Of a DNA stretch of 64,000 nt, positions 35,030 through 36,183 are shown piece by piece. Within the stretch, counting starts at the first letter, position 1; each line of letters begins with the position of its first letter. The DNA lies in contig UCKM01000007.1 in NCBI GenBank assembly GCA_900473175.1, positions 34,849-98,848 on the forward strand, given 5' to 3'. The notes beneath the pieces are model-generated. The model was given only the letters and a program-made list of their open reading frames with translations. It ran no database searches and had not been told where the DNA came from. This stretch comes from Hyphomicrobiales bacterium. GTDB lineage: Bacteria > Pseudomonadota > Alphaproteobacteria > Rhizobiales > Rhizobiaceae. The position numbers were made by a program, and so were the translations under genes.

Positions 35030-35274
35030 GAATCTCTCCTGTCTGCTTCGAACTGCAGATTAGACCTATTGTGGATCATATCCAGCGCTTCCGGCTTGCA
35101 GCTCGTCCTGACCCGCTTCATCGCTTCCAGCGAGTAATAATTGGCGGAATGAACTGGTCAGGATTCATTTCGGTAAAGGCAAGGACGCAGATCCTCAGCC
35201 CTACGAACGCAAAGCGCCGATGGTTCCAACAGCCATTTATTCAATTTTAGAGATGGGCCAGCAACGGTGGGCAG

Positions 35275-35394
35275 TACAAAAAACAACACCCACCGCGGGA
35301 GGAGATGCGGTGGGTGCTATTTGTAAAGACCGGCTGGGAGGAGGAGTGCCGGTCTTTAGTCGTCCAGAGCTTGGGAGGAGGAGTGCTCCGGACG
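35275..35394 (-). ncRNA. Three tandem CUCCUCCC-loop hairpins (ar14/CcsR 'cuckoo'-like sRNAs)
   Basis: Read on the minus strand, three hairpins follow the DUF1127 stop. C is CGTCCGGAGC/GCTCTGGACG (35361-35394, one mismatch). B is AAAGACCGGC/GCCGGTCTTT (35325-35357), a perfect 10 bp stem. A is CACCCACCGC/GCGGTGGGTG (35287-35316), also perfect, followed by a TTTTTT run, so it acts as terminator. Loops B and C contain CCTCCTCCC and loop A contains CTCCTCCC, complementary to Shine-Dalgarno sequences. The ar14 RNAs of rhizobia and CcsR1-4 of Rhodobacter share this motif, tandem layout and a DUF1127 gene upstream. Confidence 0.85.
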
Positions 35395-35407
35395 AAGCTG
35401 TATTCGA

Positions 35408-35557
35408 TTAGTGAGCCGAAGCGGCCTTCTTGGCAACGAAGGCGATATCGCCACGGGAGATGCCGAGGTCGTTCAGTTCACGTGCAGACAGGCGGCTCAG
35501 TTCGGTGACAGTGTCACGATAGCGGCGCCAGTTGTTGTAAGAGCGGATCAGGTTCAT
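35408..35557 (-). CDS. DUF1127 small protein, host gene of the CcsR-like hairpins
   Basis: This is a 49 aa protein, MNLIRSYNNWRRYRDTVTEL followed by SRLSARELNDLGISRGDI and AFVAKKAASAH. The W-R-R-Y-R...EL..LS.REL.DLGI.R.DI pattern is the DUF1127 (YjiS-like) domain. Such small Arg-rich proteins can bind RNA: the Rhodobacter homologue CcaF1 affects maturation of the CcsR sRNAs encoded just downstream. AAGGTGAGTGAA precedes the ATG. Its stop lies only 13 bp before the first hairpin, so gene and sRNAs should share a transcript. Confidence 0.88.
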   Translation of the reverse strand: MNLIRSYNNWRRYRDTVTELSRLSARELNDLGISRGDIAFVAKKAASAH

Positions 35558-35656
35558 TTCACTCACCTTGTTAATTTCTTGTTTGTTGGATCATTCTCGA
35601 TCGGTGAGCTGGATATAGTGAACGCCTTTGGAAACTTGCAGTGACGTTTTTGCATA

Positions 35657-35705
35657 GCAGCATTGCAATCCAAGAAGAGATGCTGCACTGCAACACACAT
35701 GTGTG
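35657..35705. promoter_or_regulatory. Inverted repeats upstream of the DUF1127 gene
   Basis: About 100-150 bp before the DUF1127 start are a dyad, GCAGCAT (35657-35663) with ATGCTGC (35680-35686), and a separate 12 bp perfect palindrome, CACACATGTGTG (35694-35705). They may be operators or part of a leader. No stress-sigma promoter could be assigned with confidence. Confidence 0.3.
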
Positions 35706-35730
35706 AAAGCTCGCATAAAGGGTGCTGGCC

Positions 35731-36183
35731 CTAACGCAAAATCAATCCCCCCGCTTTCGCGGGGGATGCTTTCGCTGGAGCCTTTTTTCGAGCGCGTTTT
35801 TGAGCTTCGAGTTCTGCGAGCTCCTTGTCAGCCTTTTTCGCAGCTGCCTCGCATTGCCGGCGGAATTTCTCCACCTCTTCCTCGGTCAGATGTTCGATAC
35901 CAATAAAGGCGTTCTTGGCTTCGGATACCCGCACAAGTTCATCGAGTTTGGCCTGTATGGCGACACCGTCGCGATTCTGCGTATTCTGGATAAGGAAGAC
36001 CATCAGGAAGGTGATGATGGTGGTACCGGTATTGATGATGAGCTGCCACGTGTCGGAGAAACCGAAGATCGGCCCGCTGACGGCCCAAACGATGATGGTC
36101 AGGCAGCACAGTATGAAGGTGATCGGTTTGCCCGCCGCCATTGCGACGCTATTGGCGATGCGTGTGAACAATTTGCCGAACAT
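35731..36183 (-). CDS. Low-affinity iron permease family protein
   Basis: This 150 aa membrane protein has two hydrophobic helices (about residues 20-40, ITFILCCLTIIVWAVSG, and 50-66, TGTTIITFLMVFLIQNTQNRD), the core of the low-affinity iron permease (PF04120-like) family. The QNTQNRD motif after the second helix is characteristic. The C-terminal part is a charged helix ending in a Lys/Ala-rich tail. Bacterial members are poorly studied, so iron transport is uncertain. The last codons form a terminator-like hairpin (ATCCCCCGC/GCGGGGGGAT, 35745-35767), which is unusual. Confidence 0.82.
   Translation of the reverse strand: MFGKLFTRIANSVAMAAGKPITFILCCLTIIVWAVSGPIFGFSDTWQLIINTGTTIITFLMVFLIQNTQNRDGVAIQAKLDELVRVSEAKNAFIGIEHLTEEEVEKFRRQCEAAAKKADKELAELEAQKRARKKAPAKASPAKAGGLILR

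What the first reader, a model, noticed from the sequence alone, without database searches (positions are those of the whole stretch)
35275..35557. DUF1127 gene with three tandem CUCCUCCC-loop hairpins: a CcsR/ar14 ('cuckoo')-type sRNA locus
On the minus strand a 49 aa DUF1127 gene is followed, 13 bp after its stop, by three strong 10 bp hairpins. Their loops repeat CTCCTCCC (the full CCTCCTCCC in two of three), complementary to Shine-Dalgarno sequences. The last hairpin ends in a T6 run. Stems differ while loops are conserved, which points to selection on the loop. This matches the layout of CcsR1-4 in Rhodobacter and the rhizobial ar14 RNAs. The first copy's stem has one mismatch and the last loop is shortened, so copies may have diverged in role. 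Expected role: stress-induced post-transcriptional control, with the DUF1127 protein as a possible maturation factor.
Basis: partly seen in the sequence, partly recalled or inferred. Interest (0 to 1): 0.82.

Follow-up and report, generated by a model that had tools for sequence, protein, structure and literature searches.

The report
DUF1127 gene carrying an ar14 sRNA
A tiny bacterial gene is followed on the same strand by a three-hairpin regulatory RNA of a known family that can stick to the ribosome-binding sites of other messages; it is a well-formed member of a known kind, with promoter evidence suggesting which regulator switches it on.

Summary
On the minus strand of a probable Phyllobacterium genome, a 49-aa DUF1127 gene (35557-35408) is followed by three hairpins matching Rfam ar14 (RF02344) over the full model: 104.7 bits, gathering score 58.8. 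Thirteen orthologues show covariation (14 of 38 pairs changed on both sides; 0 of 500 shuffles); loops are more conserved than stems. The "mismatch" in hairpin 1 is a G-U wobble. The third loop carries one C-to-U change.

It is a new member of a known kind: the DUF1127/cuckoo (CIN1) layout, ar14 family. What I add is the promoter. A conserved inverted repeat (35668-35650) resembles published VtlR/LsrB boxes and precedes an invariant CTATAT in 13 of 13 orthologues. Among 80 named DUF1127 relatives, 80 have an ar14-type RNA downstream and 80 a box-like site. An LsrB-like regulator is encoded elsewhere in the genome.

So I expect LsrB/VtlR control rather than the RpoH control of Rhodobacter ccaF1-CcsR. 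Co-transcription, LsrB binding, processing and target silencing are inferred, not shown.

The parts
35650..35668 (-). Inverted-repeat VtlR/LsrB-like box TTGCAATGCTGCTATGCAA (inferred activator site)
   Evidence: Published VtlR motif CAATGCAGCCATGCA (PMC12595884, passage) agrees at 13 of 15 positions. 89% mean pairwise identity among 13 orthologues against 42% upstream of it. The 17-mer TGCAATGCNGCNATGCA, which I composed with the window in view, has 2 exact sites in 4.88 Mb, this being one by construction.
35636..35641 (-). -35-position hexamer CTGCAA (weak match to consensus, 17 nt from the -10)
   Evidence: CTGCAAGTT 94% identity against 51% for the spacer; the consensus scan found no TTGACA-type promoter
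35613..35618 (-). -10 element CTATAT; transcription start inferred near 35606
   Evidence: Invariant in 13 of 13 orthologues; start site not mapped
35562..35569 (-). Shine-Dalgarno-like AAGGTGAG of the DUF1127 gene
   Evidence: AAGGTGAGTGAAATG 97% identity in 13 orthologues
35408..35557 (-). DUF1127 small protein gene, 49 aa
   Evidence: PF06568 60.2 bits; 92-98% identical in 17 named loci, L110-L126
35281..35400 (-). ar14-family RNA (RF02344) in the 3' region of the DUF1127 gene
   Evidence: 104.7 bits, model 1-123; covariation
35360..35395 (-). Hairpin 1, loop with CCTCCTCCC (35373-35381)
   Evidence: 8 of 11 pairs with both-side changes in A1
35324..35358 (-). Hairpin 2, loop with CCTCCTCCC (35336-35344)
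   Evidence: 5 of 11 pairs with both-side changes in A1
35278..35322 (-). Hairpin 3, loop with CTCCTCCC (35297-35304), with T6 (35283-35278): intrinsic-terminator-like end
   Evidence: sequence. The terminator scan did not list it on this strand, its loop limit being 8 and this loop 10

Best explanation
One transcript of about 330 nt starts near 35606 from an activator-dependent sigma-70 promoter carrying a VtlR/LsrB-type LysR box. It encodes the 49-aa DUF1127 protein and ends in a three-hairpin ar14 RNA whose last hairpin is the terminator. Cleavage in the short linker after the stop codon (probably RNase E, as reported for ccaF1-CcsR) would release the ar14 RNA. Its exposed C/U-rich anti-Shine-Dalgarno loops would pair with the ribosome-binding sites of several mRNAs and silence them, as NfeR1 does in Sinorhizobium. 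Shown here: gene, RNA family, covariation, loop conservation, conserved box and -10, an LsrB-like regulator in the genome. Inferred: LsrB control, one shared transcript, processing, targets.
For: Rfam match; covariation 14/38 pairs in 13 orthologues and 19/38 in 25 distinct sequences, 0/500 shuffles each; motif identity 0.96-0.98 against stem 0.77-0.78. Promoter footprint: box 89%, -10 100%, spacer 51%, upstream 42%. Box with at most 3 of 15 mismatches in 13 of 13 window-type loci. 80 of 80 named DUF1127 relatives have an R1 RNA hit downstream and a box-like site with at most 4 of 15 mismatches starting 93-133 nt before the ATG; at most 1 of 40 single-base shuffles per locus does as well. By Rfam's own cut-off, 18 of the 20 of these that I scanned have ar14 (L163 and L181 do not). 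Six other DUF1127-like genes of this genome (five over cut-off) have no TCCTCCC within 220 nt downstream. LsrB-like regulator: full-length 484.7 bits to 9HH1, which PMC11975290 deposited as LsrB. No sigma-70 consensus promoter found inside the DUF1127 gene. Precedents: NfeR1 is LsrB-bound and silences by its aSD loops (PMC10746234, passages and section 5); VtlR directly activates atu1667 (PMC7486931, passages).
Against: No RNA data for this organism. The consensus scan also misses the proposed promoter. The box pattern was composed with the window in view, so its exact match here is by construction; the relaxed pattern (at most 2 mismatches) is not enriched in the window (7 found, 4.29 expected). 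The other exact genomic box (L011) has no identified target. In the sister L001-type loci the best site has 2-4 mismatches (13 of 13). One DUF1127 gene without ar14, L034, also has a 3-mismatch site, so the box does not mark ar14 alone. Elsewhere in the family most ar14 RNAs sampled are not directly behind DUF1127 (24 of 28), so a separate start is not excluded. Window-type loops are partly eroded in congeners.
Confidence: 0.72

Rival explanations
1. CcsR-like, RpoH-driven stress operon: the same parts, but transcribed from an RpoH-type promoter on heat or oxidative stress, with the DUF1127 protein maturing the RNA.
For: Same gene order as ccaF1-CcsR1-4, where CcaF1 binds RNA and promotes RNase E maturation (PMC10253847 passages).
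Against: The conserved promoter has CTGCAA (CTCCAA in a few), not CTTG, 17 nt before CTATAT, plus a VtlR/LsrB-like box (RpoH consensus recalled). LsrB is itself redox-responsive in A. tumefaciens (PMC11975290, title and passages), so oxidative induction is still possible by that route.
Confidence: 0.12
2. The ar14 RNA is an independent NfeR1-like gene with its own promoter that merely lies behind DUF1127.
For: Stand-alone ar14 genes exist in the same genome (L003, L004), and 24 of 28 RNA-first family loci are not directly behind a DUF1127 gene.
Against: In the stand-alone loci of this genome the box lies 63 nt (L003, 1 mismatch) and 55 nt (L004, 4 mismatches) before ar14; here it lies 267 nt before ar14, ahead of the DUF1127 gene, and no consensus promoter was found in the gene.
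Confidence: 0.12
3. The hairpins are only a terminator and 3' stabiliser of the DUF1127 mRNA.
For: Hairpin 3 plus T6 looks like a terminator. The near-twin DUF1127 gene at L007 keeps hairpin 3 while hairpins 1-2 have decayed, so the gene can persist without the full RNA.
Against: Two further hairpins with conserved loops are not needed for termination; the loop motif is more conserved than the stems; NfeR1 of this family silences through its aSD loops (PMC10746234).
Confidence: 0.04

Closest known systems
alpha-r14 family / NfeR1 of Sinorhizobium meliloti (Rfam RF02344)
   Same: Three hairpins with CCUCCUCCC aSD loops, variable stems, full-length model match; LsrB-type box in the promoter (PMC10746234).
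   Different: NfeR1 is a 123-nt RNA from its own promoter; here the box and -10 lie before a DUF1127 gene. Two window loops carry the full 9-mer and the third one substitution.
ccaF1-CcsR1-4 operon of Rhodobacter sphaeroides (CIN1 / cuckoo locus)
   Same: DUF1127 gene followed on the same strand by cuckoo-type hairpins (PMC10253847, passages).
   Different: Three hairpins of ar14 type rather than four CcsR RNAs, 49 aa rather than 71 aa, LysR-box promoter rather than RpoHI/HII.
VtlR/LsrB-activated DUF1127-type genes (atu1667 of A. tumefaciens; bab1_0914 and bab2_0512 orthologues)
   Same: Short DUF1127-type protein gene and a similar box motif (PMC7486931, PMC12595884, passages).
   Different: The passages seen treat the protein gene; PMC7486931 states it is unknown whether atu1667 acts as protein or RNA. 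I could not inspect atu1667 itself.
AbcR1/2 (ar15, RF02345)
   Same: aSD loop sRNA next to the lsrB-like gene; present in this genome (L005, 59.4 bits).
   Different: Different family and architecture.

Membership tests
ar14 (RF02344) | Covariance-model score above the curated gathering score, full length | tested here: met
   104.7 against 58.8 bits, model 1-123
ar14 (RF02344) | Three hairpins each with an unpaired CCUCCUCCC | tested here: met
   Two exact, third UCUCCUCCC, so met with one substitution; three hairpins aligned in 13 orthologues with some shortened loops
ar14 (RF02344) | Structure conserved by compensatory changes | tested here: met
ar14 (RF02344) | Discrete stable transcript that silences mRNAs through its aSD loops | not testable with these tools
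   No RNA data; reported for NfeR1 (PMC10746234)
CIN1 / ccaF1-CcsR locus | Short DUF1127 gene directly followed by cuckoo-type hairpins | tested here: met
   R1 hit downstream in 80 of 80 named relatives
CIN1 / ccaF1-CcsR locus | RpoHI/RpoHII promoter (as in R. sphaeroides; I do not know that the CIN1 label requires it) | tested here: not met
   No CTTG at the -35 position; CTGCAA-N17-CTATAT conserved; RpoH consensus recalled
CIN1 / ccaF1-CcsR locus | RNase E processing and RNA binding by the DUF1127 protein | not testable with these tools
   -
NfeR1 orthologue proper | Own sigma-70 promoter immediately before the RNA | tested here: not met
   No consensus promoter in 35250-35760 (a simple scan that also misses the proposed upstream promoter); L003 in the same genome has the NfeR1-like arrangement instead
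VtlR/LsrB regulon | Box motif in the promoter and an LsrB-like regulator in the genome | tested here: met
VtlR/LsrB regulon | Binding by, and dependence on, LsrB | not testable with these tools

The most novel reading that the evidence does not exclude
In Phyllobacterium and its relatives the LsrB/VtlR-controlled DUF1127 genes are dual-output transcripts: each induction yields both a small protein and an anti-Shine-Dalgarno sRNA. Effects credited to the DUF1127 proteins of this regulon would then be partly RNA effects, and complementation with the open reading frame alone would miss half of the product.
Probability: 0.5. Interest if true: 0.55.

Novelty: new member of a known kind. Interest (0 to 1): 0.33.

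Why it matters
The locus itself is ordinary for the family: ar14 is over the cut-off in 108 of 121 sampled genomes of the taxonomic family. Its value is that it joins two lines of work that the passages seen here treat apart: LsrB-driven ar14 sRNAs and VtlR/LsrB-driven DUF1127 genes. PMC7486931 leaves open whether its VtlR target atu1667 works as a protein or as an RNA (passage). In the loci seen here both products share a gene and, by inference, a transcript. Of the 9 papers listed, none holds both 'DUF1127' and 'alphar14', and no paper held DUF1127, CcsR and LysR together. The original cuckoo-family paper was not held, so priority cannot be judged fully.

Tried and rejected
Chance hairpins: rejected. 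An E. coli-like sigma-70 promoter: the consensus scan found none, so the promoter rests on comparison. A relaxed LysR-box scan of the window: not enriched. Rhizobiaceae plasmid DUF1127 relatives (4 records inspected of 299 hit): no ar14 is fused directly to the gene. Rhizobium L191 has one starting 218 nt after the stop, behind a hairpin that looks like a separate terminator; S. meliloti Ak57 L190 has two ar14 before two DUF1127 genes, between tig and trmFO; Ensifer L192 and Rhizobium L193 have none over the gathering score. These count against a universal operon. Among 28 RNA-first family loci (L194-L221) a DUF1127-like ORF was found within about 1.6 kb on the same strand in 16 by a simple regular expression that can miss some; it lies directly before the RNA in 3 of the 28 by that expression (L211, L214, L216) and in a fourth (L199) by eye from the printed sequence. 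So the fused layout is one of several. The 80 named loci were chosen by similarity to this protein (80 kept of 396) and partly are the same loci as those of the 12 unnamed congeners, so they are not independent of them. L011, the other exact box, led nowhere. I did not run target prediction or structure prediction.

Full report
WHAT IS THERE. On the minus strand at 35557-35408 lies a 49-aa DUF1127 gene (PF06568, 60.2 bits). Twelve nucleotides after the stop begin three hairpins that match Rfam ar14 (RF02344) from first to last model position, 104.7 bits against a gathering score of 58.8. The region folds far better than shuffled sequence (z -9.42, 0 of 200). CTCCTCCC occurs only three times in the 64-kb window, once in each loop. 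The finding's 'one mismatch' in stem 1 is a G-U wobble. Loop 3 is 10 nt long, as in 17 of 26 aligned rows that read ACCTCCTCCC there, and differs from them by one C-to-U change.

WHERE IT LIVES. The genus is inferred as Phyllobacterium: the closest named DUF1127 loci (L110-L126, 92-98% identity) are of that genus except one labelled only Rhizobiales bacterium. The window's own genome has four ar14 loci over the cut-off. Two follow a DUF1127 gene (the window and L001). Two stand alone with a LysR-type box shortly before the RNA: L003 with 1 mismatch and L004 with 4. A further locus, L007, is a DUF1127 gene with a decayed ar14 below the cut-off (26.5 bits), hairpin 3 largely intact. Among 21 genomes searched, ar14 is over the cut-off in the 13 of the own genus (own included) and in none of the 8 from other families, three of which have weak matches. 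My sorting of the genus loci finds the window-type locus in 13 of 13 genomes, the L001 type in 13 of 13 and the L003 type in 13 of 13. A glyoxalase-like motif follows the window-type locus in 18 of 18 loci checked by a short peptide pattern.

IS THE RNA UNDER SELECTION. On 13 window-type orthologues, 91.5% of pair cells are standard pairs, and 14 of 38 pairs have changes on both sides (27 cells; 0 of 500 shuffles reach it; sliding the partners drops pairing to 37-48%). With the 13 L001-type sequences added (25 distinct rows), 19 of 38 pairs and 81 cells change on both sides. Motif columns are 96-98% identical pairwise, stems 77-78%. The finding's refuting condition, absence of loop conservation in close relatives, is not met. 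Against it: by folding, only 2 of 13 window-type loci keep the full 9-mer in all three loops, against 12 of 13 of the L001 type; several have 8- or 7-mers, and L107 keeps only CTCCC in the third loop.

WHAT SWITCHES IT ON. Aligned upstream regions of the 13 window-type loci show islands of identity: an inverted repeat around GC.GCTATGCA (19 columns, 89% mean pairwise identity), CTGCAAGTT (94%), a variable spacer (51%), an invariant CTATAT, and the Shine-Dalgarno region (97%); sequence before the repeat is 42% identical. The repeat agrees with the published VtlR motif CAATGCAGCCATGCA (PMC12595884, passage) at 13 of 15 positions in the window. NfeR1's LsrB site is described as TGCA-N6-GCAT (PMC10746234, section 5 read). 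A 17-mer that I composed from that motif and the window, TGCAATGCNGCNATGCA, has 2 exact sites in 4.88 Mb (the window's by construction) and 22 with at most two mismatches, against 3 for the reversed pattern. Within the window alone the relaxed 15-mer is not enriched (7 against 4.29 expected). An LsrB-like regulator is present: a LysR-type protein encoded beside an ar15/AbcR RNA aligns over its full length to PDB 9HH1 (484.7 bits), which PMC11975290 deposited as LsrB. This points to LsrB/VtlR control, not to the RpoHI/HII promoter of ccaF1-CcsR (PMC10253847, passages). LsrB binding itself is inferred.

BREADTH. Of 396 DUF1127 relatives in named genomes the best 80 were kept. All 80 have an ar14-type RNA downstream on the same strand by model R1; of 20 that I also scanned with Rfam, 18 pass its cut-off, L163 and L181 do not. 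In 79 of 80 a TCCTCCC lies within 220 nt of the stop; the exception, L171, has its array starting at that edge. All 80 have a box-like site (0-4 of 15 mismatches) starting 93-133 nt before the ATG, reached by at most 1 of 40 single-base shuffles per locus. R1 was built from loci of this genus, some of which are the same loci as among the 80. Five other DUF1127 genes of the own genome over the Pfam cut-off, and one below it, have no TCCTCCC within 220 nt downstream; one of them, L034, has a 3-mismatch box-like site. Elsewhere in the family the parts are rearranged: in S. meliloti Ak57 (L190) two ar14 RNAs precede two DUF1127 genes between tig and trmFO, and RNA-first sampling gives mixed layouts, with DUF1127 directly before the RNA in 4 of 28. 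Over 121 genomes of the family, 114 have an ar14 match and 108 one over the cut-off.

HOW IT PROBABLY WORKS. Activation by LsrB gives one transcript; the protein is translated; the 3' RNA is released and its C/U-rich loops block ribosome-binding sites. The last step is established for NfeR1 (PMC10746234, passages), and RNase E processing for ccaF1-CcsR (PMC10253847, passages). Whether this DUF1127 protein binds RNA (as CcaF1) or proteins (as the A. tumefaciens short DUF1127 proteins with PhoR; PMC12501420, passages) is open.

NOVELTY. The DUF1127-cuckoo layout is known (CIN1, PMC10253847, passages), and so is ar14 with its loops (PMC3927594, PMC7143759, passages). This is a new member of a known kind. 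The joint reading, LsrB/VtlR-driven DUF1127 genes as protein-plus-sRNA transcripts, was not found, but the cuckoo-family paper and the CcaF1 paper could not be read.

Noticed in passing
L006 (G000:C36:121521-121602) and L089, L092, L094, L095, L098, L099, L101, L102, L105, L106, L108: ar14-like hairpin arrays follow a phasin-like gene in 12 of 13 own-genus genomes (8 of the 12 over the RF02344 cut-off). The ORF was read in 6 of the 12 (stop 13-21 nt before the RNA), the rest grouped by RNA similarity; PF09361 (63.3 bits) was tested for L006 only. The own-genome copy is degraded (27.3 bits). One search listed one paper with both 'phasin' and 'NfeR1' (PMC7143759), whose phasin passage I did not read.
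   Followed up: partly
L007 (G000:C25:157022-157251): A near-twin of the L001 DUF1127 gene whose ar14 has decayed to hairpin 3: a natural case of the protein kept without the RNA.
   Followed up: partly
L185, L187, L188, L189, L164, L170: Two or three ar14-type RNAs in tandem behind one DUF1127 gene.
   Followed up: no
L011 (G000:C28:85012-85028): The only other exact site of the VtlR/LsrB-like 17-mer in the genome, with no RNA family hit over the gathering score in its 3-kb locus.
   Followed up: partly
L190 (CP090106.1, S. meliloti Ak57), and L132, L134, L171 and others: A TrmFO-like N-terminus lies downstream of the DUF1127/ar14 cluster in several genera: a shared neighbourhood, probably ancestral. 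L190 is probably the NfeR1 locus (gene neighbours recalled).
   Followed up: partly
G019:C130:31746-32772: Three weak ar14-like matches (45.6, 31.7 and 45.1 bits, below cut-off) in a row in a genome of another family; the first overlaps the end of a DUF1127-like ORF with a 2-mismatch box-like site upstream.
   Followed up: no
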